From Alphaproteobacteria bacterium (GTDB lineage: Bacteria > Pseudomonadota > Alphaproteobacteria > Rhizobiales > Hyphomicrobiaceae): a stretch of 64,000 bases of DNA. Each line of letters starts with the position of its first letter. Position 1 is the stretch's first letter. The notes beneath the pieces are model-generated. The model had not been told where the DNA came from. It did not search any database and saw only the letters and a program-made list of their open reading frames with translations. Below, piece by piece: positions 15,010 through 59,466 of this stretch. Location of the stretch: contig JAGVSR010000107.1 of assembly GCA_019137195.1 (NCBI GenBank), positions 1-64,000 on the forward strand. The letters are read 5' to 3'. The position numbers and the translations under genes were made by a program.

Positions 15010-16332
15010 CTACCGCTCCTTGAACGCCCGCGAGATCTGGTCCTCCAGCGGCTTCAGGATGTAGGAAAGTGCCGTACGGCTGCTGGTTCGGATCTGCACC
15101 TCGGCCGGCATGCCGGGGAAGAGCTTGTGCTCGCCGAGCTTCGTGAGCTCGCTGTCCGGGATCTCGAGCCGGGCCATGTAGTAGGACTCGTTCGTCTTGT
15201 CGTCGTGCGTGAGGTCGGCTGCCACACGCTTCATCTGCGCCGTCACCTCCGGCGTCGTCCTCTGATTGAACGAGGGGAAACGGATAATCGCCGTCTCCGC
15301 CCTGAGCACCTGGTCGATGTCTTGCGGCGCCACCTTGGCGTCGATGACGAGACGGTCGCCCTCGGGCACGATCATCATCACAGGCTCGGACGGATTGATC
15401 ACGCCGCCCACCGTGTGGACCGACATCTGATGCACGACACCGTTCTGCGGCGCACGGATGTCGATGCGCTTCAACTGGTCCTCGGCCGCAATTTTGCGCT
15501 CGTTGAGCTCGGCCTGCTTGCCCTGGGTCTCGCGCAGGTCCGTCATCAGCTCAGCTCGGAAGTCCTGGTCGATCCTGAGGATCTGCAGCTCGATCTCGGA
15601 AATCTTTCCCTTGGTCTGCGCCGCCGATGCCTGAAGAGCGCCAAGCTCGCCATTGAGCCGGGCGGCATCGCGGCGGAGCTGCACCCGGCGCTGTGTGGTG
15701 ACGAGCTGTTTCGATTCGAGCTCCTCCATGGCGCGGATCTCCTCGCCGATGAGCTCGATCTCGCGCGTCTTGGCCTCGATCTGGCCGGAGACGCCCTCGA
15801 ACTCCTCCTGCAACTGGCCGATGCGCTCCCTGAGCTGCGCCTTCTGGCCTTCGCGCGAGTCCCTGCGGCTCTCGAACAGCGTCCGCTCGCCGGACATGAT
15901 CTCACCCACCTCCGGGTCGTCGGCGCGCGACGAGATCGCTGCTGGGAACGTGATCTCCTTCGCCATGTCGCGCTCGGCCTTGTAGCGCGCCTCACGCCCG
16001 TTGAGCTGATCGAGCTGCTTCGAGATGACCTGCAGGTTCGCCTTGGTCACCGTCTCGTCGAGCCGCAACAGAATGTCGCCGGTCTTCACCTTGTCGCCGT
16101 TCTTGACCATGATCGCGCCGACGACGCCGCCGACGGGGTGCTGCACCTTCTTGACGCTGCTTTCGACGACCACGAGTCCGGAGGCGATGACCGCCCCGGC
16201 AAGCTCGGTTCGGGCCGCCCACACACCCACACCGCCCACCATGGCGAAGGAGACGGCGAGGCCGGCCAGCATGTAGTTGCGAACACGGCCGAGCGACGGC
16301 TGCCTCGAGAGCGGAGTTGGCTTGCTGCTCAC
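15010..16332 (-). CDS. HlyD/PrsE-family type I secretion periplasmic adaptor (locus 1)
   Basis: The 440-residue membrane-fusion subunit links the inner-membrane ABC transporter to an outer-membrane TolC channel. Order: short cytoplasmic tail, one transmembrane helix (YMLAGLAVSFAMVGGVGVWA), lipoyl-like half (HPVGGVVGAIMVKNGDKVKT), a long coiled coil from about 100 to 265 rich in Glu/Arg/Gln, the second lipoyl half (IDIRAPQNGVVHQM) and a C-terminal beta region ending YILKPLEDQISRAF. The GTG start overlaps the ABC stop by four bases (GTGA), so the two are translationally coupled. No tolC gene is in the window. Confidence 0.93.
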   Translation of the reverse strand: MSSKPTPLSRQPSLGRVRNYMLAGLAVSFAMVGGVGVWAARTELAGAVIASGLVVVESSVKKVQHPVGGVVGAIMVKNGDKVKTGDILLRLDETVTKANLQVISKQLDQLNGREARYKAERDMAKEITFPAAISSRADDPEVGEIMSGERTLFESRRDSREGQKAQLRERIGQLQEEFEGVSGQIEAKTREIELIGEEIRAMEELESKQLVTTQRRVQLRRDAARLNGELGALQASAAQTKGKISEIELQILRIDQDFRAELMTDLRETQGKQAELNERKIAAEDQLKRIDIRAPQNGVVHQMSVHTVGGVINPSEPVMMIVPEGDRLVIDAKVAPQDIDQVLRAETAIIRFPSFNQRTTPEVTAQMKRVAADLTHDDKTNESYYMARLEIPDSELTKLGEHKLFPGMPAEVQIRTSSRTALSYILKPLEDQISRAFKER

Positions 16333-42500: not shown

Positions 42501-44959
42501 GCCACTTTGCGCTTCAAGGTCTGGCTTTCGTACTGCCAGGAGCCGTCGCGCATATACCACTGCCACGATGTCTCGAGGCGCAGGAGCTGCCAGGCGAGGC
42601 CCTTGGCGTCGGCGGGTTTGCCGGACTTGTCGAGCACGACGACGTCGAAGGAGGCCTTTGAGCCTTCGTCGAGGTTCCTGCCGTCGAATGCCGGCTTGAC
42701 GCCGATGCGGGTCTCCTCGAGATCGACGGGGATCGAGACGGAGCGCTCGATGGTGCGGCCGCCGCTCTCGCGGAGACGCAGGATCACACTCGCTTCGAGG
42801 TTGCGGGCGGTGCGGCCGACGGCCGGAAGGACGACGGGTACTTGGGCCGTGCCGTCGTCACCGGTCGTGGGCAGGCCCTCGAGGGCCTGACGGACGGGCG
42901 AGATGCGCTCGGAGGCGTCGCCGAACGCATAGCCGGCGTAGAGGCCTTCGGCCTTGTCGCTCTCCTTGACCACGACCTCGCCCTCGATGCCGAGGCCGGC
43001 GGCAGGGGGGCCATAGAGATAGCGACCCGAAAGCTTGACGGTCTTCGTCGCGTCGGGCGTGAGCGCGCCCGCGCCTGCGTCGAGCGTCATGTCGAGGCGC
43101 TCGGGCACGTAGTCCTCGACCAGGAACGTGGCCTGGGTCAGCGCGTCGTCCTTGGGGTCGGCGTGGATTTTGGCGCGCCAGGTGCCGGTCATGGCACCGT
43201 GGTTGAGCCCGAGCCGGATCGTGCGGCCGCCAAGGCCCTGGTCGGCGAGCGTATAGCGGACATGCTCGACGCCGTCGGGCCGGGACACGATCAGCGTCAC
43301 GGGCAGCGAGGCGGCACGGCCGGCGGCGTCGCGCACGAGGGCGGTAAAGCTGACGTCCTCGCCAGGGCGGTAGACGCCGCGCTCGGTGTAGAGGAAGGCA
43401 TCGATCGGGCCCGGCGGCTCGCGGCCCTTGACGCCGCGATCGGAGAGGTCGAACGCGTTGGACGAGAGATCGAGGAAGGCGTACTCGCCCTCGCCGTTCT
43501 CGGCGACGAGCACGGCCGGCGCCATGCCACCTTCGCCTTTGACGAGGCCGGCGTCGAAGCGGGCGTAGCCGTTGCCGTCGGTCTTGGTGGTGGCGAGGAT
43601 CTCGTTGTTGCGAGCCACGAGCTTCACCGAGGAGCCGGGCATGGCCTTTGTCTCGGCGAGCGAGCGCACGAAGGCGTGAATGCCGTCGTCGCCGGTGAAG
43701 GCCGTAAGGCCCATGTCGGAGACGATGAACCACTGCGTGGCGATGTTCGAGTAGGATCCGTCGTCCTCGCCCTCCTCGTCAGCGGCGCCAGCCTTGCCTG
43801 GGCTGGCGATCATGGCGTAGGCGCCGGGCTTCAGCTCGCCGATGCTGTCGGTGACTGGGAAGGCGGTCGTCACCTCCTCGTTGAGCCTGGTGGCGACGTC
43901 CATCGTGCCCTTGTAGATGCGCTGGCCGGTTCGATCGCGCAGGTTCGAGAGCTCGTAGCCGTAGAGCTGCCGGTCGAAATCGCCGTTGCCGAGCGCCTGG
44001 GCGAGGCTGCGGTCGCCGATGCGGTAGACCTCGATGGCGACGTTCGACGTGTTGACGGAGACGACCGGGATGCCCTGTTGCCCGCGGGTCGGAAGCACAT
44101 AGCCCTTGCCCGAGAAGCGCACGAACGGCTTGCGGTCGGGGACGTAGACGGCGATGTTGATCGGCTTCTCGAGGCTTTCCTCGACGTCCGACGGCAGGCC
44201 GGCGCGGACGGCGATCTCGTAGCGCGCTCCGTGCGTCATGCCCTCGACGCAGAGCTGGCTGTCCTCGGGGACAACGGCCTGCGGGTCCTTGCCGTCGACG
44301 GAGACGAACTTGGCGAAGTCGACGTTCGCGCGCGACAGGGTCTCGGAGAACTGGATGCATACGCGCGGGCTCGAGGCCTCGCTGTCGGTGGTGTAATCGG
44401 TCATGCGGAAGCCGTGCTCGGCGCGCAGCTTCTCGTAGGCCTCGCGGACCTTGGCGTCCTCGACGAGCGCGAGGCTCGACTTCAGGCTGTCGATGGCGGG
44501 GCGCCACATGACGCGGCGAACGAGCGCCTCCGACAGCACGGCGAGGGCCTTCGACTTCAAGGCCGGCGTGGTGGCGCGCTGGTAGGCAAGATAGGCGGCG
44601 GCGGATGCGTTGACAGGCAGGTCGTAGCGCTCGCTACCCTTGTCAGGGTCGGCCTTGATGGCGAGCAGGGCGCGGGCCAGGCCGAGCCATCCGTCGGCAC
44701 TCTTGGGATCGGCGGTCACTGCGTAGGCATAGGACGACGAGGCGGCGCGGGGGTCGGTTGCGAGCGCGCGGTCGCCGGCGCTGCGGAGCTCGGCGGGTTT
44801 TCTGGTCCCGGGCTTCCAGTTGGCAACGACGTAGGACTCGTAGCGCTCGGCGTCCTTGCCGACGCCGAAGTGGGCGAACGGCTTCAGGTCGGACGCGGCG
44901 AACGCCGGTCCCACGGCCATCATGATGAATGCAATGAGAATGCTGCCGATGATGTGCAT
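39536..44959 (-). CDS. bacterial alpha-2-macroglobulin family protein
   Basis: An 1807-residue periplasmic protease trap. The signal peptide is MHIIGSILIAFIMMAVGPAFA. The thioester site YPYGCAEQTT (CxEQ, Cys about 1306) is intact and should covalently catch attacking proteases; the bait region lies upstream. MG-type beta domains fill the first ~1000 residues (for instance FLYTERGVYRPGEDVSFTAL). A helical thioester domain follows (DGSGAFGAWGPSNGDLWLTA). Near the C-terminus a Ser/Asp/Gly-rich stretch (about 1709-1750) interrupts the last beta domain. I see no lipobox, unlike E. coli YfhM. It is coupled to pbpC, suggesting protection when the wall is breached. Confidence 0.94.
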   Translation of the reverse strand: MHIIGSILIAFIMMAVGPAFAASDLKPFAHFGVGKDAERYESYVVANWKPGTRKPAELRSAGDRALATDPRAASSSYAYAVTADPKSADGWLGLARALLAIKADPDKGSERYDLPVNASAAAYLAYQRATTPALKSKALAVLSEALVRRVMWRPAIDSLKSSLALVEDAKVREAYEKLRAEHGFRMTDYTTDSEASSPRVCIQFSETLSRANVDFAKFVSVDGKDPQAVVPEDSQLCVEGMTHGARYEIAVRAGLPSDVEESLEKPINIAVYVPDRKPFVRFSGKGYVLPTRGQQGIPVVSVNTSNVAIEVYRIGDRSLAQALGNGDFDRQLYGYELSNLRDRTGQRIYKGTMDVATRLNEEVTTAFPVTDSIGELKPGAYAMIASPGKAGAADEEGEDDGSYSNIATQWFIVSDMGLTAFTGDDGIHAFVRSLAETKAMPGSSVKLVARNNEILATTKTDGNGYARFDAGLVKGEGGMAPAVLVAENGEGEYAFLDLSSNAFDLSDRGVKGREPPGPIDAFLYTERGVYRPGEDVSFTALVRDAAGRAASLPVTLIVSRPDGVEHVRYTLADQGLGGRTIRLGLNHGAMTGTWRAKIHADPKDDALTQATFLVEDYVPERLDMTLDAGAGALTPDATKTVKLSGRYLYGPPAAGLGIEGEVVVKESDKAEGLYAGYAFGDASERISPVRQALEGLPTTGDDGTAQVPVVLPAVGRTARNLEASVILRLRESGGRTIERSVSIPVDLEETRIGVKPAFDGRNLDEGSKASFDVVVLDKSGKPADAKGLAWQLLRLETSWQWYMRDGSWQYESQTLKRKVADGTLDVTAAAPAHLETDVRYGRYRLEIAPAVKDELATSIEFNAGWYAGDETADSPEILDVGLDKASYEAGDTAKLRIASKTGGKALVSVLGSGLLDMQEVDVPKGGGEVSLKVADTWGPGAYATVLLYRPMEIEAKRMPSRALGTIWVGVDQKPRTLAVALATEAKIKSGSTLSIPVKLTGLAAGEEARVAVAAVDVGILNLTRYQAPAPESHFYAQRKLGVEIRDFYGRLIDGMRAERGKVRSGGDAMEETGLKGSPPVEETVAFHSGIVKVEADGTAKIEFALPDFNGTVRVMAVAWTKDKVGHGTSDVIVRDAVALTASAPRFLTLGDEVRFDMSLHNVDGPDGNYVFAVTREPAVEGPADGMREAVDLMNRDVALKNGERRSESLIVEPADVGLETYTVRVTGPNGVDVHRTLTFDVKPPAGDIRRMTVKELAANGGKLTLGKDLVSGLIRSRTTVSLSVGPTARMDVAGLLRQLDRYPYGCAEQTTSRAMPLLYVNAVAASIGIAPDKELKERVQKAIDRVFEMQDGSGAFGAWGPSNGDLWLTAYVTDFLTRAKEQSFEVRAVPFGLALDRLQNFIANAQDFDAGGEDRAYALYVLARNGRAPIGELRYYIDTRLDRFSTPLAKAQLGATAGMLGDKPRAEAAFRAALKDFDDAMKDQVTTARDDYGSTLRDGAALVALTSEANVAKTEAPRLVNVISKAYQARSYTSTQEQAWMLLAAKALGDEAKGTKLMLGETPVQGSILRSLSVEDLEKGVTVTNSGDVTTDAVVTVIGASLTPEPAISKGLAVERSFYKLDGTPVKLDSATGGTAELAQNERLVAVVKVLSDEEAGRVLLADRLPAGLEIENPRLVESGDVKSISWLDSALKPEHSEFRDDRFVAAFNLSSGASDGGSDSSDDESSDSSGSPDSTAGGQAGNAPGAASPESTVGGAPAKATATVAYVVRAVTPGKFVHPAATVEDMYRPERYARTGSGTLTVTPGK

Positions 44960-49487: not shown

Positions 49488-49553
49488 CGTTTCTGAGCAA
49501 ATCTGACCGTAAGGTGCCGTCCGTCGATGAAAGCAAGACGGACGGACGGGGAT

Positions 49554-52343
49554 ATGGCGTCGATCGCAGGCACATCACTGAACGACACGCTCGCGGGCGG
49601 GGCGGAATCAGACGTCATCGACGGCGGCGAGGGCAACGATAGCCTCAGCGGCGCGGCCGGCAGCGACACGATCTCGGGCGGACTGGGCCGCGACACGCTG
49701 GTCGGCGGTGAGGGCAACGATGTCCTCAACGGTGGCGCCGACAACGATTTCCTCAACGGCGGCGCGGGGAACGACGTCCTCTACGGCGAGGACGGAAACG
49801 ACGGGATCTACGGCGGCGGCGGCAACGACACGATCGATGGCGGGGCTGGCAGCGACAATCTGTGGGGCGACGGCGGCAACGATCTCATGTCGGGCGGTGA
49901 CGGCGCGGATAAGCTCACCGGCGGTACCGGCAACGACACCATCGACGGCGGCGCAGGCGCCGACGTCATCAACGGAGAGGCCGGCAACGATACCATCATC
50001 GTGCGCCTCGGCGATTCCGGAGACGTCATCAGCGGCGGTGCGGGCATCGATCGCGTCGTGCTCGAGCTCGCTTCGAGCCAGCTCGACAACGCGCTTGGCG
50101 CCGAGTTCGTCGCATTTCAGGCGTGGATGACGAGCCTCCTCGATGAGGCCGGCGGAGACATCGGCGTGCTCAGCAGCGCGACGACGGGTCCCACGTTCAC
50201 ATTCACCTCACTCGGGCTCACGCTCGGAACGTTCGAGGATATCGCCGTAACCGTCGATGGCCAAGCCGTGTCCGTCGCCTCGCTCGCCGTCACGGCGCCG
50301 GAGGTGGAGGCATTCACGAGCCTTACCACGGACGAGGACGAGGCTGTGGCGAGTGAAGTCGCCGCGACCGATGCCGACGGGAGTGTGCTCAGCTGGAGCC
50401 TGCTCGGCGCTCCGGCGCACGGGACGCTCGAGCTCGACCCGGCAACGGGCCATTACGTGTACACGCCGTCGGCCAACTACAATGGAGCTGACCAGTTCGT
50501 CGTGCGCGTTACCGACGACCAGGGCCACACTGCCGACCAGACGGTCGACGTGACGGTCGTGTCGGTCAACAATGCGCCGCTCGCGGCGGCGACGGCGAGC
50601 CTTTCTGCCACCGAAGACGTGGCGGCGAGCGGTCAGGCGACCGCGACGGACGCCGACGGAGACAGCTTGACGTGGAGCCTCGCGTCCGGTCCCGCCAACG
50701 GTACGCTCAGCCTCGATGCGGCGACCGGTGCCTACACCTACGTCGCCAGCGCCAACTACAGCGGCGCCGACCAGTTCACGCTCCGTGTGTCGGACGGTCG
50801 CGGCGGCTTCGCCGATCAGCTCGTCTCGGTCGCGGTTGCCGCAGTTGCCGATGCGCCCTCGCTTGCGACCAGCGACGTCAGCGTCTCGGCAACGAAGACC
50901 TTTACCGGCACCAGCGGCAACGACACGCTCACCGGCACCGATGGTAGCGATGTCATCAACGGCGGCGCAGGTAACGACCTTCTTCGCGGCGACGGCGGCG
51001 CCGCCACCTATCAGATCGCACTCGCAATCGAGGCGTCGCTGGCCGATCTGGACGGCTCGGAGAGCCTGTCGATCACCATTCGCGGTGTTCCTGCGGCGGC
51101 CACGTTGTCGGCTGGCGTGCGGAACGCCGACGGGTCGTGGTCGCTCACCGCAGCTCAGCTCGCGGGGCTCACGCTCACGGCGACGGGTGCGGCCGATCTC
51201 GATCTCGACGTGACGGCGGCGGCGACCGAGCTCTCCGGCGGCACGGCATCGGTCACTGAAACGCTGAGGGTGACGTTCGTACAGGCTACCGGCGGCGACA
51301 CCATCGATGGCGGCGCAGGAAACGACACCATCTACGGCGGCGCCGGCCGCAACACGCTCATCGACGGCTCCGGCAACGACAAGGTCTACGGCCAGGGCGG
51401 CGACGACACCTTCGTCGCCGGAACGGGCAACGACACGCTCGACGGTGGGGCGGGCTTCGACACGCTCGACATGTCGTGGGCCACGTCGGCGGTCACCGTG
51501 AACCTCGCCTCGGGCTATGCCTCGGGCGGACTTGGCAGCGACAGCGTCCTCAACTTCGAGGGCATCATCGGCTCGAGCTACGCCGACACTCTTACCGGCA
51601 ACTCGGTCGCCAGCCTTATCTCGGCGGGTGCCGGCAACGACAAAGTCTACGGCAACGGCGGCGACGACACGCTCGTCGGCGGGTCTGGCAACGACACCAT
51701 CAGCGGCGGCGACGGCAACGACCGTATCGAGGACGGCCTCGGCAACGACGACGTTTCCGGCGGAGCGGGCAACGACACCTTCATCGCCGGCTCAGGCGTC
51801 AACAAATACTCGGGCGGCTCCGGCACGGACACGCTCGACTATGGGGCCGCGACGCAGGCGATCTCGGTCAACGTCGGCAAAGGCACGATCGTCGGCTGGG
51901 ACGACGACACGTTTTCGAGCGTCGAGGTGTTCATCGGCACGTCGTTCGACGACCGGTTCTACGGCGGCAGCTCGGCAAATACGTTCGTCGGCGGGGCGGG
52001 CAACGACTTCTTCCAGGGCCTCGGCGGCGCCGACCGCTTCACCGGCGGAACGGGCAACGACACGTTCTTCTGGACGCTCAAGGACATCCGCGGCGGCAGC
52101 ACGAGAAGCTCCGGCGGAGACCATATCAGCGACTTCTCTGCCGGCGACGTGCTCGACCTCACCGAGTTCACGCGAGGGCTCAGCGGTTCGGCCCTGCTCG
52201 CCGTCCTCAAGGTCACCGACATTGCGGGTGGCAGTGTCGTCGCGATCAAGTCGGGCAACACGTTCTACGACGTGGCGACGCTCGACGGCATTCACGGCGT
52301 GACGGTGGCGTCGCTTCTTGCCGACGGCGCGATCCTCGTCTGA
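49554..52343 (+). CDS. RTX calcium-binding protein with cadherin-like domains
   Basis: A 929-residue acidic protein without an N-terminal signal, as expected for a type I secretion substrate. Residues about 5-145 hold some 15 nonapeptide RTX repeats (GGAGNDVLYG, GGTGNDTIDG type). Two cadherin-like repeats follow at about 252-436 (ATDADGDSLTWSL, ADQFTLRVSD). A short RTX block precedes a VCBS-like domain (about 483-577, AGVRNADGSWSLTAAQLAGL). More RTX blocks run to about 840. The C-terminus (DVLDLTEFTRGL to ADGAILV) resembles the type I secretion signal region. No protease or lipase motif is seen, so an adhesin or matrix role is likely (inference). ATG 49527 is an alternative start. It heads the locus with ABC, HlyD and lyase. 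Confidence 0.9.
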   Translation: MASIAGTSLNDTLAGGAESDVIDGGEGNDSLSGAAGSDTISGGLGRDTLVGGEGNDVLNGGADNDFLNGGAGNDVLYGEDGNDGIYGGGGNDTIDGGAGSDNLWGDGGNDLMSGGDGADKLTGGTGNDTIDGGAGADVINGEAGNDTIIVRLGDSGDVISGGAGIDRVVLELASSQLDNALGAEFVAFQAWMTSLLDEAGGDIGVLSSATTGPTFTFTSLGLTLGTFEDIAVTVDGQAVSVASLAVTAPEVEAFTSLTTDEDEAVASEVAATDADGSVLSWSLLGAPAHGTLELDPATGHYVYTPSANYNGADQFVVRVTDDQGHTADQTVDVTVVSVNNAPLAAATASLSATEDVAASGQATATDADGDSLTWSLASGPANGTLSLDAATGAYTYVASANYSGADQFTLRVSDGRGGFADQLVSVAVAAVADAPSLATSDVSVSATKTFTGTSGNDTLTGTDGSDVINGGAGNDLLRGDGGAATYQIALAIEASLADLDGSESLSITIRGVPAAATLSAGVRNADGSWSLTAAQLAGLTLTATGAADLDLDVTAAATELSGGTASVTETLRVTFVQATGGDTIDGGAGNDTIYGGAGRNTLIDGSGNDKVYGQGGDDTFVAGTGNDTLDGGAGFDTLDMSWATSAVTVNLASGYASGGLGSDSVLNFEGIIGSSYADTLTGNSVASLISAGAGNDKVYGNGGDDTLVGGSGNDTISGGDGNDRIEDGLGNDDVSGGAGNDTFIAGSGVNKYSGGSGTDTLDYGAATQAISVNVGKGTIVGWDDDTFSSVEVFIGTSFDDRFYGGSSANTFVGGAGNDFFQGLGGADRFTGGTGNDTFFWTLKDIRGGSTRSSGGDHISDFSAGDVLDLTEFTRGLSGSALLAVLKVTDIAGGSVVAIKSGNTFYDVATLDGIHGVTVASLLADGAILV

Positions 52344-52525
52344 GCGGCGTCCGGTGGGCTCCCGGGCGCAGCGATCGCTCGGGTAAGCGAGTGGGCGTTA
52401 ACGAGGCGTGAAGCGCGGGCGCATTGTGCTCAGCCAACGCTTAACCTCTTGGCTCTATTGTTTCGTGCGGACACGGCCTCGCGTCGGAGGCCGGCCCGGC
52501 GTTGTCGTGTCACGAGGCAGTTGTC

Positions 52526-54181
52526 ATGCGTACCGCGAAGCGAATGCTGAACGAGGCCCGCCGCGCACTTCTTGCGGCCGCGGCCCTCAGCGCGGTGAGC
52601 GCAGTCCTCCTCTTGGCGCTACCACTCTACGCCTTTCTTCTCGTCGAAGCCGGCGACCTGTCGGGCGGCCTCGAGGCCCGGCTTCTGACGGCGGGTCTCG
52701 CGGCGGGAGCTCTCATCGCGGCGCTGGTCATGATCGCGGCGCGGGATCTCGTGCTCGTGCGGGCGGGCGTATGGCTGTCGCACTGGCTCGGGCAGCACGT
52801 GCTCGACAACGGGCTCAGGCGCGCCATTCCTGCGGAGGAACTGAGGCGTCAGGCCGAGGCCGGCGAGGCGGTCGGCGACATGCTGGCGGGGCCGGCTGCA
52901 CGTGCGCTGACCAGCTGCATCGCGGTTCCCATTTTTCTCGCGCCGCTCGGTGCAATCTCGACACTTCTTCTGCTCGTTGCCCCCATGGGCGCCGGACTGA
53001 TGGTGCTTGCAATGGCGCGCCTCGGCACGTCCGGCTCCGGTCGGGCCCACTCTGCAGCGACCTCCTTTGGCGAGGCAGCCTTGCTGCGGGCGTCGACGAT
53101 CCCAGGGCTGGCGCAGTCTGCCGGTGTGCAGTGGGAGCGGCACAACCGGCATCGGGTCGCCCTACGCTACGCGGATGCCTCGAGGACGGCGCGACGCTGG
53201 AGCCTGGTCGTCAGCATCGGGGTGCTGACGCTGGTGGCCGGGGCCGGGACCGCGGCCTGGCTCCAGGCGAGCGGTGCAACGACCAGCGGACAGACGGCAG
53301 CGGCGATCATGCTGACGGCGATGGCGCTCGGCGCTCTTCTGCGCTTTGCCGCCGAGATGCCAGCACTGCTGAACGCACGCCAGGCATGGCGGACGATCGA
53401 GGCGTTGCCGCCGCAGGCGGCGCTCCTCAAGTGCGCGACGGGCCGCGTCGCGGTTCCCCAGGGTGCGCTCGTGCTCGAGGGCGTGAGCGTCGTCCACGAC
53501 GGACGTAGCACGCCATCGCTCGACGGCATCGACCTTACCTGCCGGAGCGGCGAGTGCATTGCCGTCACGGGAGCGGCTGGGTCGGGGAAGTCGACGCTGG
53601 CGGCGGTGGCGGCCGGCGCACTGCAACCGACCCAGGGCACCGTCACCATTGACGGCATCGCCGTGACGACCTGGCAGCGGGCGCCGGAGGCGGCGCCTAT
53701 CGGCTACTATTCGGACGACCCGCATCTGGTTGCGGGCAGCGTCCGGCAGAACATCGCAGGCTTTGCGTCCAATGACGCCGGAACAGCTGAGGACGCCGCG
53801 GCGCAGGCCGGAGTCGGCGCGCTTCTCATGGCCCTGCCGAAGGGTTTCGATACCCAGGTCGGGTCGGGTGGCGAGGGCCTGTCCTGCCGCGAGCGCCGCG
53901 CGGTGGCGCTCGCGCGCGCCTGCTACGGCGCACGCGCATTCATCGTTCTCGACGAGCCGGAGCATGGGCTCGACGCCGTGCTCCTGCAGGCGTTCGAGGA
54001 GGTGCTGCTCGGACTTGTTGCGGGCGGAACCGGTGTCATCATGATCACGCGCAATCCGGCACTCATCGATCTTGCCGACCGCGTGGTCGCGCTCGACGGC
54101 GGGCGAGCGCACGACGTCGCGCGCTGGCATCGCCCCGTGCGGCGAGGGCCGGCCGCGGACGCGGCTGTTGCGGCAGCGTAA
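52526..54181 (+). CDS. type I secretion ABC transporter-like protein with altered catalytic motifs (locus 2)
   Basis: A 551-residue PrtD-type exporter subunit, membrane part about 10-300, ATPase part 325-530. Walker A GAAGSGKST (349-357) and Walker B FIVLDEPEHGLD (472-483) are intact. Other essential motifs are not. The Q-loop reads GYYSDDPHL (no Gln), the signature reads LSCRE (452-456) instead of LSGGQ, and the H-loop reads MITRNPA with Arg for His. ATP may be bound but poorly or asymmetrically hydrolysed. It could pair with an intact ABC such as locus 1, or act as a gating subunit (inference). GAGG lies ten bases before the ATG. The HlyD gene starts 16 bases after its stop. Confidence 0.85.
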   Translation: MRTAKRMLNEARRALLAAAALSAVSAVLLLALPLYAFLLVEAGDLSGGLEARLLTAGLAAGALIAALVMIAARDLVLVRAGVWLSHWLGQHVLDNGLRRAIPAEELRRQAEAGEAVGDMLAGPAARALTSCIAVPIFLAPLGAISTLLLLVAPMGAGLMVLAMARLGTSGSGRAHSAATSFGEAALLRASTIPGLAQSAGVQWERHNRHRVALRYADASRTARRWSLVVSIGVLTLVAGAGTAAWLQASGATTSGQTAAAIMLTAMALGALLRFAAEMPALLNARQAWRTIEALPPQAALLKCATGRVAVPQGALVLEGVSVVHDGRSTPSLDGIDLTCRSGECIAVTGAAGSGKSTLAAVAAGALQPTQGTVTIDGIAVTTWQRAPEAAPIGYYSDDPHLVAGSVRQNIAGFASNDAGTAEDAAAQAGVGALLMALPKGFDTQVGSGGEGLSCRERRAVALARACYGARAFIVLDEPEHGLDAVLLQAFEEVLLGLVAGGTGVIMITRNPALIDLADRVVALDGGRAHDVARWHRPVRRGPAADAAVAAA

Positions 54182-54197
54182 CGGATCAGGAGATTGC

Positions 54198-55154
54198 ATG
54201 GCCATCGGTCCTTCACACCAGACAGACGGCGGAGCTGAGGGCGAGCCGCGCCTCGACATCCGGTCGCCGGTCATCGCAGGCGTGGGTGCGTTCGTCGTGC
54301 TGGTCGCGGCCGCCGCCGCCGCGGTGTCGCTGGTTCCGGTTCCGCAGGTCGTGTCGCTCGCCGGTGTCGTCGCCGAACGGGCAGAGCGTGCCGAGGTCAT
54401 TGCTCCGACCGCAGGAACGATCGCTACCGTCCACGTCGGGCCCGACGAGGTCGTCGAGGCAGGCCAATTGCTGGTTAGCCTGGACAACACGGCGGTGAAG
54501 GAGGAGGCGGCAGCGCTGAAGGCTCAACTCGGAGCCGCCGCCAAAATGCTCGAGTCTGCGCGCGTGGAAGCGGTTACCGCCGCTGATCTCGCCGAACGCG
54601 GGGCCGCGACTGAAGAGGCCCTCGCGCACGCACGGACGAAGGCCGCTGAGGCCGAGGCAGAAGTCGGACGGCTGGTCGCGCGCATCAAGAGCGCCGAGCA
54701 GCAGCTCGAGCGAAGTCTCGTGCGGGCGCCGTCGTCCGGCCACGTTAAGGCGGTCGACGTCATGGACGGACAGCAGGTGGTATCCGGGCTCAAGCTCCTC
54801 GAGATCGCGACGGATCGTGGAATGCTGGCCGTCGACGCCTGCTACCCTTCCGGTGCGGCGGGCCTTCTTGCCAAAGGTGCCGTCACGGCCGTCAAGCCTG
54901 CAGCGCCGCTCGTGACCTCCCCGCTCGCAGCGGGCGGCCCGGCGACGACCGGCACCGCGTTTACCGGCCGCCTCGCGGCGACGGTACGGCCTCAGGCCGC
55001 CGGCGCCTGTGCGACCTCGGTGCGGGTCGAGATCGAGACGTTGGCGGCGGGAGCATTGCCTGCCGGGACGTCCGTTGCCGTCGGCATCGATCTCGGCAAG
55101 CGCACACTTGTCGAGCAGCTCGGTTTCCTGGCCAAACGCCAGAACCTCATTTAA
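54198..55154 (+). CDS. short HlyD-family periplasmic adaptor (locus 2)
   Basis: A 318-residue membrane-fusion protein: cytoplasmic tail, helix VIAGVGAFVVLVAAAAAAVSLV (28-50), lipoyl half IAPTAGTIATVHVGPDEVVEAG, a coiled coil of only about 75 residues (110-185), the second half LVRAPSSGHVKAVDVMDGQQV and a C-terminal beta part. It is some 120 residues shorter than the locus 1 adaptor, mainly in the coiled coil, so it would reach a TolC partner differently. AGGAG five bases before the ATG. It sits between the altered ABC and the PL14-like gene on one transcript. Confidence 0.88.
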   Translation: MAIGPSHQTDGGAEGEPRLDIRSPVIAGVGAFVVLVAAAAAAVSLVPVPQVVSLAGVVAERAERAEVIAPTAGTIATVHVGPDEVVEAGQLLVSLDNTAVKEEAAALKAQLGAAAKMLESARVEAVTAADLAERGAATEEALAHARTKAAEAEAEVGRLVARIKSAEQQLERSLVRAPSSGHVKAVDVMDGQQVVSGLKLLEIATDRGMLAVDACYPSGAAGLLAKGAVTAVKPAAPLVTSPLAAGGPATTGTAFTGRLAATVRPQAAGACATSVRVEIETLAAGALPAGTSVAVGIDLGKRTLVEQLGFLAKRQNLI

Positions 55155-55178: not shown

Positions 55179-56096
55179 ATGGCGAAACTCACACCGCAGA
55201 CCATTCTGTTCAATGGAGCCGGAATTGGAATCGGCCTCCTCTCGGCCGTGTACATGATCAATTCGGCGCTGTTCACGCCTACCATTCCGCAGTGCAGCCA
55301 GCGCTATCAAAAGGCCATCGAGCTCGGACTCAAGTCGCGGTCGGGCAAGCCGATGACGCCGATCGAACTCGAGACGAGGGCCGGGCTCGGCAGCAGCGGC
55401 GTGCTCGAGAACGCCAGTGTCGAGCTTGTCGACGGCGCACCCTCGGCCGCGGCGCTCAAAGTACGCCTCGAGAAGGGCTCGGGCTCGGTGCATGCAAAGG
55501 ATGCCAAGCCGGGCGGCATCAGCTTCCTTTGGAAGCCGAGCGGGATGGCAGGCGCGACGGCCGCGTGTCTCAGCTATTCGGTGTTCCTGCCGTCGGCGTT
55601 CGACTTCGGCGGCGCGGGCGTGCTGCCGGGCCTCTTCGGCGGCGCCGATCCAGATGTGGGCGGTCACACCCGCGGCTTCGCTACACGCCTCATGTGGAAC
55701 TCGGACGGTATGGGCCAGATCGATGCCGAGCTTCCGAATGCGTCGTCCCAGCAAGGAGCTTCTGCCGGCGGCGAGATCGACGTGCAGATCCCTATCTCGG
55801 ACTCGGCGCGATCGGTGCCGATCGGGCCTTCCGCCTTCCGCCTGCCGCGTGGGCGCTGGGTCTCGATCGAGCAGGAGGTCGTTCTCAACTCGCCGGACAA
55901 GTCGGACGGTGTGGCGCGGCTGTGGATCGACGGTACGCTCAAGATCGAGCGCAACGACCTGCATTGGCGGGGAGGCAAGATGAGCGGACTCGCTGGCGTC
56001 ATCGCCGACGTGTCCTACGGCGGGGTCGACAACGGGTACGTGGCGCCGGCCGATACCGCGCTGCACATCTCTGCACTGCAGGCACGATGGAAATAG
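55179..56096 (+). CDS. membrane-anchored PL14-like polysaccharide lyase
   Basis: A 305-residue protein with an N-terminal hydrophobic segment (ILFNGAGIGIGLLSAVYMI, about 9-27) that anchors or exports it. The rest looks like a beta jelly-roll related to polysaccharide lyase family 14 (alginate/glucuronate lyases): LSYSVFLPSAFDFGGAGVLP, GLFGGADPDVGGHTRGFATR, LMWNSDGMGQID, and GRWVSIEQEVVLNSPDKSDG, VARLWIDG, IADVSYGG. Assignment rests on this pattern from memory. Two cysteines may pair. It starts 24 bases after the adaptor gene and ends the locus, followed by a strong terminator. It may trim or remodel a surface uronic-acid polymer linked to the RTX protein (inference). Confidence 0.72.
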   Translation: MAKLTPQTILFNGAGIGIGLLSAVYMINSALFTPTIPQCSQRYQKAIELGLKSRSGKPMTPIELETRAGLGSSGVLENASVELVDGAPSAAALKVRLEKGSGSVHAKDAKPGGISFLWKPSGMAGATAACLSYSVFLPSAFDFGGAGVLPGLFGGADPDVGGHTRGFATRLMWNSDGMGQIDAELPNASSQQGASAGGEIDVQIPISDSARSVPIGPSAFRLPRGRWVSIEQEVVLNSPDKSDGVARLWIDGTLKIERNDLHWRGGKMSGLAGVIADVSYGGVDNGYVAPADTALHISALQARWK

Positions 56097-56383: not shown

Positions 56384-57781
56384 TCAAAGGCGGTCTGCGT
56401 ATATCCAGCCGGCGGTCTTAGCCTCCTCCTCGGAGCAGAACCAGCGGTCGCCGCGACTCTCGCGGACCTTGGCACGGTCATAGTCAGGCGACCAGGGCAG
56501 CATGTACGTGCGGCTGCCGGAGCGGATGCGGGCCTTGATCGGGCAACCGTTCGGAGCCTCCTTCCTAGCCTCCTCCCAGCGGCGCTGGCGCCATTCGGCG
56601 GGCCGCTCGGCCGAGCCGGTGGTCCAGACTCCGGCCTTGGACGAGCGCGCCGAATGCTCCTCGCCGGCGTAGCTGGCAAAAAGTCCGGCTTCGGCGAAAA
56701 CGTGGCCCTGGCGCACGAGGTCGGCAGCGATGTCGGCACCGGCAATGGTGCAGGTACCGGGCTCGGCGCCGTCCGTCGCGCCGGCCGAGATCGTGCAGGC
56801 GACGACGCGGCTGCGCACCAGCCGATCGAGCGCGGCGCGGGCGGTCGCGCCACAATGCCAGCTTTTGCCGTCGGACTGGGCACAGTCCTGGTCGGCGTCG
56901 GGGGCCTCGATGCCTTCCAGCCGGATCACCCGGCCGCCGACGCGCAGACGGTCGCCAGCCAGGGCTATGGCCTTGCCCTCGACGACCGAAGGGGACGACG
57001 GTGCCGCAGAGCGGGCGACAGAGGCCGGCGCGGGCGCGGAGCCGGGTGTCGTGGCGCCCGAGAGGTTCCAGACCAGGAGGCCGCTCGCGGCCACGACGGC
57101 AATCAGGGTGAGTGCGGCGGGGACGTGATCGAGCCGGTCGAGGCCAGGAACGAGCACGGCGCGCTCGCCAATGCCTTCGAGCCAGGCGTGGACGGCGGCG
57201 CCGGGGGAAGCCGCTCTGTCAGCGCCTTCGTCCGTGTCCCTGCCGAGCAGAAGCACGAGGCCTGCAACGGCAGCGACCGCGGCAGCCAGAACGGCATCGG
57301 TATCAGCTCCGAACCGCGCCCATCGTACGGCGGCGACGAGCGCCGCGGTTCCGCCGGCGAGCACCAGAACGGGCCGGAGCCGGTAGTGGTCGAAGGCACG
57401 GCCCAACGGCTCGACGGCCAGGCGAGGACGGCCGCCCTGCGGCATCATCCGGCCGAGCCCGGCGAGGAGGCCGGCAACTCCTGCGGCGACGAGGCCAGCC
57501 GCCCTCCTGAGCAATGAGGCCGTGCCCGCTGCTGCGCTTCTCAGCCTTTCGGCGGCGGCGGCACGCCCGGATCGAATGGCAGGGGCGACCTTCTCGCCGA
57601 CGGCGCCGAGGCCCGCGGCTGCCGCGTCGACACTCTTGCGGCCTCCCTCTTTCACGCTGTCGAGGGCGGCCGCGCGCATCTCCTCGATCTTGTTGCGGCG
57701 GTCCTGGCGGCGCAGGAGTATGGTCGTGCGCACGTACTCCTGCCAGTCGAAGCCGTCCTCTTTCTTGCGCCAGAAGCCCAA
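56384..57781 (-). CDS. membrane protein with thermonuclease-like and sunset domains
   Basis: A 465-residue protein. An N-terminal basic helix region (LGFWRKKEDGFDWQEYVRTT, NKIEEMRAAALDSVKEGG) leads to about four hydrophobic segments (about 85-250). After an Ala/Pro/Ser linker comes a staphylococcal-nuclease-like domain (about 285-400): AGDRLRVGGRVIRLEGIEAP, WHCGATARAALDRLV, GHVFAEAGLFASYAGEEHSA. At the C-terminus is a sunset domain: NGCPIKARIRSG, YMLPWSPDYDRAKV, GDRWFCSEEEAKTAGWIYAD. It could be an envelope nuclease. The TTG at 57781 with GGAG upstream is my start; an upstream extension is possible. Confidence 0.78.
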   Translation of the reverse strand: MGFWRKKEDGFDWQEYVRTTILLRRQDRRNKIEEMRAAALDSVKEGGRKSVDAAAAGLGAVGEKVAPAIRSGRAAAAERLRSAAAGTASLLRRAAGLVAAGVAGLLAGLGRMMPQGGRPRLAVEPLGRAFDHYRLRPVLVLAGGTAALVAAVRWARFGADTDAVLAAAVAAVAGLVLLLGRDTDEGADRAASPGAAVHAWLEGIGERAVLVPGLDRLDHVPAALTLIAVVAASGLLVWNLSGATTPGSAPAPASVARSAAPSSPSVVEGKAIALAGDRLRVGGRVIRLEGIEAPDADQDCAQSDGKSWHCGATARAALDRLVRSRVVACTISAGATDGAEPGTCTIAGADIAADLVRQGHVFAEAGLFASYAGEEHSARSSKAGVWTTGSAERPAEWRQRRWEEARKEAPNGCPIKARIRSGSRTYMLPWSPDYDRAKVRESRGDRWFCSEEEAKTAGWIYADRL

Positions 57782-58073
57782 GGCTCGTTGCTCCGTTTTC
57801 GTGGCTCTTCCGCGCGCAGCCCGCACTCGGCCCAGCAGGGGCTACAGGGCGCACACGAGGACATGTTTACGATGTGAATGGTGATCGTCGCCGGGAAAGA
57901 TGGCAGCCCTTTGACTTCCCGCCACGCGCCGGCCGATGGCAATCCGAGATCGACGCTTATCAACGGGTTTTGATCCATGTAGGCTCGCCGCACCCTCACG
58001 AGGACGGACAGAGTGCCGCGCTCGATGCGCCTAAACGCGGTCAACAGGCTGGCTCAACGGATCAGGAGGCGAC

Positions 58074-58763
58074 ATGGACAGGCTCTCCAAAACACTCGTA
58101 CCGCCGGGCCGACGGACCCATTCTTGGTCGCATGCGCCGTCGCGCCGGGACGGCTCATGCCCGCGTGCGGACGCCTCACCTAGCCCGCCGGCCGAGGCCG
58201 GTAGGCATCGGTCAGAACATGTGCGCGAGGCTCGCGTGCGGGCCACGGGCCTTGCGGTGGCGGTGGCGCTCGCGCTCGCTGCCGGTGCGAGCCCGTCTGC
58301 GGCAGACTTCGACGGACCGCCTCGGCCGAAGATCGATTGCTCCAAACCCGAGAACAAGAGCAAGCCTCAGTGCCGGAAGAGCTACTCGGAGATGAGCGAC
58401 GACGAGATCTACAACGCCGCTTACTGGCTCGCCCGGGACGGTCAGTACCAGGAGGCGCTCGATATCCTCGCGGCGGCGCACGACGGGAACGACAAGCGTA
58501 TCCTCACTGCGACCGGGTTCGCGACGCGCAAGCTCGGCGATGTCGATGGCGCGATGCCGTACTACCTGAGGGCGCTCGCCGCCGACCCGGGGTACAGCCT
58601 GGCTCGCAGCTATCTCGGCGAGGCGTTTCTCTCGAAGGGAGATCTCGCGGCCGCCAAGGGCCAACTCGCCGAGATCGCGGCGCGTTGCGGCACGGCCTGC
58701 GACGGCTATCCGCAGCTGGCGCGGCGCATTCAGGGCTTCGAGGCCGGACGCCGGCCGGGGTGA
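58074..58763 (+). CDS. exported TPR/Sel1-like protein, copy 1 of a tandem pair
   Basis: A protein of 229 residues from ATG 58074, which has a perfect AGGAGG six bases before it. The first ~50 residues are Arg/Pro/Ser-rich and precede a signal-like segment (GLAVAVALALAAGASPSAA). GTG 58221 would give a normal signal peptide (180 residues), but its ribosome-binding site is poor. The mature part has one TPR-like unit: NAAYWLARDGQYQEALDILA, TGFATRKLGDVDGAMPYYLR, ALAADPGYSLARSYLGEAFL and a Cys pair in IAARCGTACDGYP. It is a paralogue of the next gene. Function unknown; TPR proteins usually bind other proteins. Confidence 0.75.
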   Translation: MDRLSKTLVPPGRRTHSWSHAPSRRDGSCPRADASPSPPAEAGRHRSEHVREARVRATGLAVAVALALAAGASPSAADFDGPPRPKIDCSKPENKSKPQCRKSYSEMSDDEIYNAAYWLARDGQYQEALDILAAAHDGNDKRILTATGFATRKLGDVDGAMPYYLRALAADPGYSLARSYLGEAFLSKGDLAAAKGQLAEIAARCGTACDGYPQLARRIQGFEAGRRPG

Positions 58764-58830: not shown

Positions 58831-58917
58831 CAGACCAGCGAGTTTTCGAACCGGTCCCGCTTGTTGGTGGACGAGGATCGCCTTATGACTGGCGGCACGA
58901 AACGGGAAGGGAAAAGA

Positions 58918-59466
58918 ATGCCCATGACACGCTCCGGTACGGCTGCGGCTCTCGCGCTCGCGGCGGCCTTCTTCTCATTGCCGGCGTCAGCCGAGGTCCG
59001 CATGTCCAAGGACGTCGGACCGGCGAGCGCCAAGTGCGACCAGTATCCCAAGGACACGGCGGCGTGGCTCGCCTGCGCGGGACAGGTGCAGGCCGGCATG
59101 CCTGACCAGGAGCTGTTTTACGCCGGCTACTGGCTGGCCAAGACCGGGCGCTACGAGGAGGCGCTGAAGTATCTGACGCAGGCCGAGGTCAAGGACGAGA
59201 AGGTCCTGACCTACATCGGATTCGCGACGCGCAAGCTCGGCGACGTGGATGCGGCGCTACCCTACTACGACAAGGCGCTCGCCATGAACCCGCAGTACTC
59301 GGTGGCGCGCGCCTATCTCGGCGAGGCGTTCCTGACCATCGGCCAGCCCGAGAAGGCGGCAGCCCAGCTCGGCGAGATCGAGCGCCGCTGCGGCACGTCG
59401 TGCGCCGAGTATGCCGACCTTTCGCGGCTGATGGACGAGTACAAGGTGAAGGGCAGCCTGCGCTGA
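58918..59466 (+). CDS. exported TPR/Sel1-like protein, copy 2 of a tandem pair
   Basis: A 182-residue exported protein with signal peptide ending SLPASA. The mature part is closely related to the preceding gene: FYAGYWLAKTGRYEEALKYL, TYIGFATRKLGDVDAALPYY, DKALAMNPQYSVARAYLGEA and the Cys pair in IERRCGTSCAEYADL. GGAAGGG stands ahead of the ATG at 58918. About half of the residues in the TPR region are shared between the two copies, indicating an old local duplication. An intrinsic terminator follows the gene. Confidence 0.8.
   Translation: MPMTRSGTAAALALAAAFFSLPASAEVRMSKDVGPASAKCDQYPKDTAAWLACAGQVQAGMPDQELFYAGYWLAKTGRYEEALKYLTQAEVKDEKVLTYIGFATRKLGDVDAALPYYDKALAMNPQYSVARAYLGEAFLTIGQPEKAAAQLGEIERRCGTSCAEYADLSRLMDEYKVKGSLR

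What the first reader, a model, noticed from the sequence alone, without database searches (positions are those of the whole stretch)
52526..54181. ABC exporter subunit lacking Q-loop Gln, LSGGQ and H-loop His
Walker A and B remain, but GYYSDD, LSCRE and ITRNP replace three conserved motifs that the locus 1 ABC keeps. Degenerate sites are known in heterodimeric ABC exporters, but not, to my knowledge, as the only ABC of a type I locus. It may need the locus 1 ABC as partner.
Basis: partly seen in the sequence, partly recalled or inferred. Interest (0 to 1): 0.7.

Follow-up and report, generated by a model that had tools for sequence, protein, structure and literature searches.

The report
ABC secretion pump losing its engine
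A whole bacterial lineage has kept a type I secretion pump gene while permanently altering the parts that burn ATP, in some relatives deleting the ATP-burning domain altogether and fusing what is left to its partner protein, which suggests that a protein that began as a pump now works as a scaffold or gate in loci for the surface matrix.

Summary
The 551-aa ABC protein at 52526-54181 keeps Walker A, Walker B and the catalytic Glu, but has Asp for the Q-loop Gln, LSCRE for LSGGQ, and Arg for the H-loop His. It is not a one-off. Orthologues in 21 of 103 genomes of its GTDB family share fixed changes (Q to D in 20/21, signature GQ to [RS]E, H to Q in 17/21) and are under purifying selection. No identical operon with a canonical ABC was found.

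The locus (RTX, dABC, short MFP, PL14) is conserved. In five species of two related genera the ATPase domain is absent and the membrane domain is joined in frame to the MFP, or to its membrane helix. Elsewhere the dABC-MFP pair is missing while RTX and PL14 stay, in one case leaving an MFP scar. The PL14 'lyase' beside it has also lost its catalytic residues.

I favour a pseudo-ATPase scaffold or gate in an exopolysaccharide/RTX matrix module, no longer a classical pump. Obligate pairing with the locus-1 ABC is not shown: both ATP sites of such a heterodimer would be part-degenerate. However, all 21 dABC genomes also carry a canonical type I ABC (59/82 of the others), so dependence remains possible.

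The parts
49527..52343 (+). RTX protein with nonapeptide Ca-binding repeats and two cadherin-like/Big_9 domains; first gene of the locus, probable type I substrate
   Evidence: Pfam HemolysinCabind 1.2e-81, Big_9, Cadherin_5; one to four RTX genes sit upstream of dABC in 16 of 21 dABC loci
52526..54181 (+). dABC: degenerate PrtD-like ABC exporter protein, 551 aa (ATG 52526; an upstream TTG at 52502 is possible)
   Evidence: predicted exporter fold with PrtD 5l22 as top Foldseek match, E 2e-23 but TM only 0.41
52526..53401 (+). six-helix transmembrane domain, about residues 1-292; the only part kept in the NBD-less relatives
   Evidence: relatives L185, L199, L184, L203, L204
53570..53596 (+). 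Walker A GAAGSGKST, intact
   Evidence: K and S 21/21 in the clade
53714..53716 (+). Q-loop position, Asp397 instead of Gln
   Evidence: D 20/21 in dABC, Q 18/18 in canonical proteins
53879..53899 (+). signature LSCRERR instead of LSGGQRQ
   Evidence: second Gly to R (16) or S (5); Gln to E 18/21
53951..53956 (+). Walker B Asp476 and catalytic Glu477, intact
   Evidence: D 21/21, E 20/21
54050..54052 (+). H-loop position, Arg509 instead of His
   Evidence: Q 17/21, R only in the window protein; H 17/18 in canonical proteins
54198..55154 (+). short membrane fusion protein (MFP), 318 aa; AGGAG upstream of ATG 54198
   Evidence: HlyD_3 and RND_mfp matches; sequence read; next to dABC wherever the contig continues
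55179..56096 (+). membrane-anchored PL14 domain with lost catalytic residues (VARDE at the KSRYY positions): predicted pseudo-lyase
   Evidence: Pfam PL14 1.6e-33; alignment to 5gmt and vAL-1
56384..57826 (-). conserved neighbour: membrane protein with sunset domain
   Evidence: NCBIfam NF051437; homologues next to most loci
58074..58763 (+). conserved neighbour: repeat-rich (probably TPR) protein 1
   Evidence: homologues next to many loci
58861..59466 (+). conserved neighbour: repeat-rich (probably TPR) protein 2
   Evidence: homologues next to many loci
   Evidence: TIGR01842 722.5 bits; canonical motifs
15010..16332 (-). HlyD adaptor of the canonical system
   Evidence: TIGR01843 383.6 bits

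Best explanation
The protein belongs to a clade of PrtD-derived ABC exporters ('dABC') that has given up classical ATP hydrolysis. SHOWN by sequence: fixed loss of Q-loop Gln, signature GGQ and H-loop His with Walker A/B kept; purifying selection on the NBD; a conserved dABC-MFP-PL14 unit, usually behind RTX genes and sometimes beside PilZ/HlyD, glycosyltransferase and nucleotide-sugar dehydrogenase genes; complete NBD loss with in-frame joining of the membrane domain to the MFP (or to its membrane helix) in relatives; loss of catalytic residues in PL14. INFERRED: dABC forms a homodimer that binds ATP weakly without classical turnover (ATP at most a structural or gating ligand). With its MFP it makes an inner-membrane/periplasmic platform that holds or gates matrix components, working with the membrane-tethered PL14 domain as a dead lyase, i.e. 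a polyuronate-binding lectin. RTX proteins are then exported mainly by canonical type I systems elsewhere in the genome.
For: Fixed replacement residues in 21 orthologues against 18 canonical proteins. dN/dS of the NBD 0.04-0.22, of the TMD 0.03-0.18. dABC plus NBD-less proteins form one clade apart from canonical ABCs, SH-aLRT 99-100. Five species in two genera carry membrane domain plus MFP, or plus the MFP membrane helix, without an NBD; the dABC profile matches the two g3 loci only over positions 1-309/314, and no NBD lies near any of the five. dABC-MFP is absent while RTX and PL14 remain, with an MFP remnant in L192. PL14 catalytic set KSRYY kept in 2 of 41. Literature: HlyB H662A keeps <0.1% ATPase (PMC6222333); signature G-to-R and Q-to-E plus an acid beside the Q-loop Gln, as in ABCB11, weaken ATP binding and avoid occlusion (PMC7544095); PrtD secretion needs ATP hydrolysis (PMC8277102); PrsDE exports RTX proteins encoded elsewhere (PMC9298526).
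Against: Walker A, the Walker B Asp and the catalytic Glu are near-invariant, more than a purely structural NBD would need, so some nucleotide chemistry may persist. No biochemistry was done. Every dABC genome also has a canonical type I ABC, which would also fit a mixed complex. RTX genes sit upstream in most loci, which fits direct export. The NBD-less proteins sit on long branches and might have a different job. PL14 residues that bind sugar without catalysis were not modelled.
Confidence: 0.5

Rival explanations
1. Rewired but working ATPase: dABC is a homodimeric exporter of the adjacent RTX protein that hydrolyses ATP by a different residue set. Q-loop Asp helps coordinate Mg, the signature Arg acts in trans, and H-loop Gln senses gamma-phosphate as Gln does in RecA.
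For: New residues are fixed rather than drifting, and Walker A, Walker B and Glu are kept; strong purifying selection on the NBD; RTX gene upstream in 16 of 21 loci and own MFP. The H-loop His has been likened to the RecA Gln (PMC6222333).
Against: Sister lineages delete the NBD and keep the rest. RTX plus PL14 persist without dABC. The signature Ser is Ala, Thr or Pro in 10 of 21 and the new Arg is Ser in 5 of 21. The window protein has Arg, not Gln, at the H-loop. His loss abolishes HlyB ATPase (PMC6222333).
Confidence: 0.2
2. Obligate partner of a canonical type I ABC, either as a dABC/canonical heterodimer or as dABC dimers occupying some places in a mixed multi-dimer complex like the three-HlyB-dimer HlyBD assembly.
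For: Canonical TIGR01842 ABC present in 21/21 dABC genomes against 59/82 others, p 0.0025. Degenerate subunits of heterodimeric exporters are well known (PMC5216877). HlyB forms three dimers with six HlyD (PMC11026475).
Against: Signature, Q-loop and H-loop all changed in one subunit leave no complete composite site in a heterodimer (site definition in PMC7544095). No canonical ABC next to dABC; canonical ABCs examined have their own HlyD. The co-occurrence is not corrected for relatedness and would also follow if RTX substrates simply need a canonical exporter. NBD-less relatives exist, one (G025) with no PrtD-type ABC over the cut-off.
Confidence: 0.18
3. Relic under decay: the locus is losing an old type I system, and dABC, NBD-less and gene-less states are stages of neutral degeneration.
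For: Graded series from changed motifs to NBD loss to gene absence, with a deletion scar in L192. The window protein has a long branch (1.11 in the TMD tree and 1.25 in the NBD tree).
Against: Purifying selection in close pairs. Intact open frames in over 20 species with shared fixed replacements. Open frames with most changes at third codon positions in the NBD-less genes. The conserved C-terminal MFP motif survives the barrel deletion in L185.
Confidence: 0.12

Closest known systems
PrtD/PrsD-type type I secretion ABC exporters (TIGR01842; Aquifex PrtD, 5l22)
   Same: Domain order, six-helix TMD plus NBD, RTX gene and adaptor in the same locus; best sequence and fold match
   Different: 232 bits against a 510 cut-off; Q-loop, signature and H-loop replaced; short RND-like MFP; PL14 attached; NBD dispensable in relatives
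Heterodimeric exporters with a degenerate site (TM287/288, BmrCD, TmrAB, TAP) and ABCB11
   Same: Loss of ATPase motifs; Gly-to-Arg and Gln-to-Glu type changes in the signature, and an acid at the Q-loop, resemble ABCB11 site 1 (PMC7544095)
   Different: Those lose the catalytic Glu and keep one complete site; here the Glu stays and all other motifs change in one polypeptide with no adjacent partner
SbmA/BacA (SLiPT) family
   Same: ABC-exporter membrane domain that lost its NBD in evolution (PMC13316013), the closest precedent for the NBD-less relatives
   Different: SLiPT derives from YddA-like ABC proteins, imports peptides with the proton gradient and is not fused to an adaptor; the NBD-less genes here nest in a type I secretion clade and g3 ones are joined to an MFP
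Rhizobium PrsDE / exopolysaccharide matrix systems
   Same: A type I system linked to exopolysaccharide, cadherin-like/RTX matrix proteins and polysaccharide-cleaving enzymes (PMC9298526)
   Different: PrsDE is a working multi-substrate exporter with active glycanases; here both the ATPase and the lyase active site are altered
PL14 alginate lyases (AkAly30 5gmt, vAL-1 3a0n)
   Same: Sequence match to the beta-jelly-roll family
   Different: N-terminal membrane anchor; Lys/Ser/Tyr/Tyr of the active site lost in the window protein, and the full set lost in 39 of 41 compared

Membership tests
PrtD-type type I secretion ABC transporter | Sequence score above the curated TIGR01842 cut-off (510 bits) | tested here: not met
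   232 bits; whole-genome search of dABC orthologues 231-458 bits, none over the cut-off
PrtD-type type I secretion ABC transporter | Complete ATPase motif set (Walker A, Q-loop Gln, LSGGQ, Walker B Glu, H-loop His) | tested here: not met
   Walker A, Walker B and Glu met; Gln, GGQ and His not met, fixed across the clade
PrtD-type type I secretion ABC transporter | Genetic linkage with a HlyD-type adaptor and an RTX substrate | tested here: met
   MFP follows dABC wherever the contig continues; RTX upstream in 16 of 21 loci; but the MFP is short and scores only 54.5 bits against the 208.65 cut-off of TIGR01843
PrtD-type type I secretion ABC transporter | ATP-driven export of the substrate in one step with a TolC-like channel | not testable with these tools
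   needs secretion and ATPase assays
Heterodimeric ABC exporter with degenerate site | Partner subunit encoded in the same operon | tested here: not met
   no second ABC gene beside dABC in any f1 locus read
Heterodimeric ABC exporter with degenerate site | One composite site complete in the assembled pair | tested here: not met
   with a canonical partner both sites would carry dABC changes; inferred and the site definition in PMC7544095
Heterodimeric ABC exporter with degenerate site | Physical hetero-association | not testable with these tools
   needs co-purification
SLiPT (SbmA/BacA) | No NBD | tested here: not met
   the window protein has an NBD; only L185, L199, L184, L203 and L204 lack it
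SLiPT (SbmA/BacA) | Proton-driven peptide uptake | not testable with these tools
PL14 lyase (neighbouring gene) | Fold family match | tested here: met
   PF21294 1.6e-33, 5gmt 1.2e-18
PL14 lyase (neighbouring gene) | Active-site Lys99, Ser126, Arg128, Tyr140, Tyr142 (AkAly30 numbering; residue roles from memory, numbering fixed by Cys115/Cys124 in PMC8618178) | tested here: not met
   window V-A-R-D-E; KSRYY only in L176 and L187 among 41

The most novel reading that the evidence does not exclude
A type I secretion exporter lineage in mid-transition from ATP-driven pump to an ATP-independent device. First the catalytic motifs are replaced, then the NBD is deleted and the membrane domain joined in one polypeptide to its periplasmic adaptor. 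This would be a second, independent origin of an NBD-less ABC-exporter fold (after SbmA/BacA), working either as a scaffold or by the proton gradient, with a co-evolving dead lyase as a polysaccharide-binding subunit.
Probability: 0.35. Interest if true: 0.8.

Novelty: new variant of a known kind. Interest (0 to 1): 0.62.

Why it matters
Type I secretion is taken to need ATP hydrolysis by its ABC subunit. Here a whole clade keeps the subunit under selection with three of its ATPase motifs replaced, and relatives keep it with no ATPase domain at all. If confirmed, it offers a natural series in which to ask what the membrane domain and adaptor of such a system do without ATP turnover, how an ABC exporter becomes something else (the SbmA/BacA question), and how dead enzymes are kept as matrix-binding parts.

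Tried and rejected
Class and phylum scans gave no further dABC; the single class-level hit, G569, is canonical. A test of the MFP hairpin tip with a TolC-type motif RxxxLxxxxxxS (from memory) was uninformative: four of five canonical adaptors lack it too. Splitting the NBD-less genes into two independent origins is not shown (AU p 0.415). An MFP-less dABC in L174 turned out to be an assembly gap of Ns. Other MFP scars in dABC-less spacers were sought in 22 spacers; only L192 gave one. Sequencing error or pseudogene was rejected on conservation and dN/dS.

Full report
WHAT WAS CHECKED. The frame 52526-54181 (+) encodes 551 aa with Walker A GAAGSGKST, Q-loop GYYSDD, signature LSCRERR, Walker B AFIVLDEPE and H-loop MITRNP. 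The locus-1 ABC at 16329-18161 lies on the minus strand and has all canonical motifs. The protein is a distant member of the PrtD kind (TIGR01842 232 bits, cut-off 510); a sequence profile of its clade finds PrtD 5l22 first, and an AlphaFold2 model (mean pLDDT 73, 12-row alignment) has the six-helix plus NBD layout with PrtD as top Foldseek match. The TM-score is only 0.41-0.44, so the model supports the domain layout, not details.

IT IS A CLADE, NOT A ONE-OFF. In the same GTDB family, 20 of 103 genomes (the window's own included) carry an orthologue scoring 651-897 bits with the clade profile, while canonical type I ABCs stay at or below 475; a 21st (G330) was found by reading its PL14 locus. 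Two more distant relatives in other families of the order, G073 and G080 (585-595 bits), are partly degenerate: G080 still has a His in the H-loop, and G073 has DTPE at Walker B. Over 21 orthologues, Q-loop Gln is Asp in 20 and Glu in 1; the first signature Gly is mostly Leu; the second is Arg (16) or Ser (5); signature Gln is Glu in 18; the QR two and three places on is RA in all; the H-loop residue is Gln in 17. Walker A Lys/Ser and Walker B Asp are 21/21 and the catalytic Glu 20/21. In pairs of close species, dN/dS is 0.04-0.22 for the NBD and 0.03-0.18 for the TMD (NG86, dS near saturation in the wider pairs). The changes are therefore maintained.

THE LOCUS. The order RTX (one to four genes) - dABC - MFP (about 320 aa) - PL14 is conserved. 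Sixteen of 21 dABC loci have RTX directly upstream, three (genus g4) have EipB-like genes instead, and two are cut by contig ends. A sunset-domain membrane protein and two repeat-rich genes follow in most. In several genomes a PilZ/HlyD-domain gene, a family-2 glycosyltransferase and a nucleotide-sugar dehydrogenase lie upstream; in G023 they are followed by PL14 and a mannose-1-phosphate guanylyltransferase (TIGR01479). I read this as an alginate-like (polyuronate) exopolysaccharide setting by analogy with Alg44, Alg8, AlgD and AlgA (from memory). The window's own genome lacks the glycosyltransferase, so this setting is frequent, not universal.

THE ATPase DOMAIN CAN GO ALTOGETHER. In genus g3 (G025 L185, G324 L199) the gene beside PL14 encodes the complete dABC membrane domain followed in frame by the MFP: in L185 the MFP part keeps the lipoyl/hairpin stretch and the conserved C-terminal peptide but lacks the barrel; L199 likewise lacks most of the barrel. 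In genus g6 (G028 L184, G005 L203, G376 L204) it encodes the membrane domain plus what looks like the MFP membrane helix. None has an NBD in the gene or nearby, and the dABC profile matches the g3 loci only over positions 1-309 and 1-314; the other hits in these five genomes are exporters that cover the NBD part. The proteins are 38-52% identical within each genus with most changes at third codon positions, so they are not one assembly error. On the TMD tree they fall inside the dABC clade (99 SH-aLRT, apart from canonical ABCs); one or two origins cannot be told apart (AU p 0.415). G025 has no PrtD-type ABC over the family cut-off.

THE CASSETTE COMES AND GOES. Several same-family genomes, including same-genus neighbours of dABC carriers (G382, G384, G378, G366), have RTX directly followed by PL14 with no dABC or MFP. 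In G382 the spacer still carries a piece of the MFP C-terminus (tblastn 47% over 45 aa, E 1e-5), which shows loss at least there. On a PL14 tree, well-supported branches force at least seven gains or losses (one row, L214, is labelled 'none' only because its contig starts there).

THE PL14 GENE IS ALSO ALTERED. Aligned to AkAly30 (5gmt) and vAL-1, the positions of Lys99, Ser126, Arg128, Tyr140 and Tyr142 read KSRYY in both enzymes, in G080 and in G023, but in none of the other 39 proteins; the window has V-A-R-D-E. The numbering is fixed by the Cys115/Cys124 pair given in PMC8618178; the catalytic role of these residues is from memory (the source paper was not held). The proteins begin with a hydrophobic stretch that looks like a membrane anchor. 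I infer a membrane-tethered, non-cleaving sugar-binding domain.

MECHANISM. Known biochemistry argues against normal turnover: HlyB H662A keeps under 0.1% ATPase (PMC6222333), and in the degenerate site of ABCB11 a signature Gly-to-Arg, a signature Gln-to-Glu and an acid next to the Q-loop Gln accompany weak ATP binding without occlusion (PMC7544095), chemically similar to dABC though not at identical positions. PrtD secretion needs ATP hydrolysis (PMC8277102). With NBD loss in relatives and persistence of RTX plus PL14 without dABC, I favour a scaffold or gate that works without classical ATP turnover, with RTX proteins exported by canonical systems in trans, as PrsDE does for many scattered substrates (PMC9298526). 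A rewired ATPase remains possible because Walker A, Walker B and Glu are so well kept.

THE PARTNER IDEA. All 21 dABC genomes carry a canonical type I ABC, against 59 of 82 others (one-sided Fisher p 0.0025). This is not corrected for relatedness, and it would also arise if the RTX neighbours need a canonical exporter. Against a heterodimer: no partner gene beside dABC in any f1 locus read, separate adaptors, and no complete ATP site in the pair. HlyB works as three dimers on six HlyD (PMC11026475), so a mixed complex of dABC and canonical dimers is another form of partnership that the data do not exclude.

VERDICT. A real, conserved and unusual variant of the type I ABC exporter, with natural NBD-less descendants. 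The closest precedent for the last step is SbmA/BacA (PMC13316013). Literature searches found no description of this clade, but the library is partial.

Noticed in passing
55179-56096: PL14 alginate-lyase-like protein with an N-terminal membrane anchor and lost catalytic residues (VARDE for KSRYY); the full set is lost in 39 of 41 compared, intact only in G080 and G023.
   Followed up: yes
L185:7210-8862, L199:6241-7968: In-frame joining of a dABC membrane domain to an MFP without any ATPase domain, in two species of genus g3.
   Followed up: yes
L184:6818-8275, L203:3659-4876, L204:2583-3767: dABC membrane domain followed only by what looks like the MFP membrane helix, in three species of genus g6, always next to PL14.
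   Followed up: partly
L192:6909-7043: Remnant of the MFP C-terminus between RTX and PL14 in a genome without dABC: a deletion scar, or possibly a retained small peptide.
   Followed up: partly
54198-55154 and orthologues: Conserved MFP C-terminal peptide (GQRTLLDQLxxPLxRNxNRAFRG in most orthologues) that survives even when the barrel domain is deleted in L185; weaker in the window MFP.
   Followed up: partly
L037, L039, L195: In genus g4 the dABC unit sits behind an EipB-like and (in L037) a DsbD_N-like gene instead of RTX, and its ABC is the most degenerate (LPMRARR, ATGEP; GYMGEN, LTFRQT).
   Followed up: partly
L040:8935-10857: An otherwise canonical PrtD-type ABC in G007 with Gln in place of the H-loop His (ITQRP).
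   Followed up: no
L187:2773-10601: Compact cluster in G023: PilZ/HlyD-domain protein, glycosyltransferase, nucleotide-sugar dehydrogenase, PL14 with intact catalytic residues, and mannose-1-phosphate guanylyltransferase; looks like an alginate-type polysaccharide locus.
   Followed up: partly
39536-44959 (-) and 37257-39539 (-): Very large (1807 aa) minus-strand protein followed by a 760 aa gene; looks like a bacterial alpha-2-macroglobulin and penicillin-binding protein pair (from reading, not searched).
   Followed up: no
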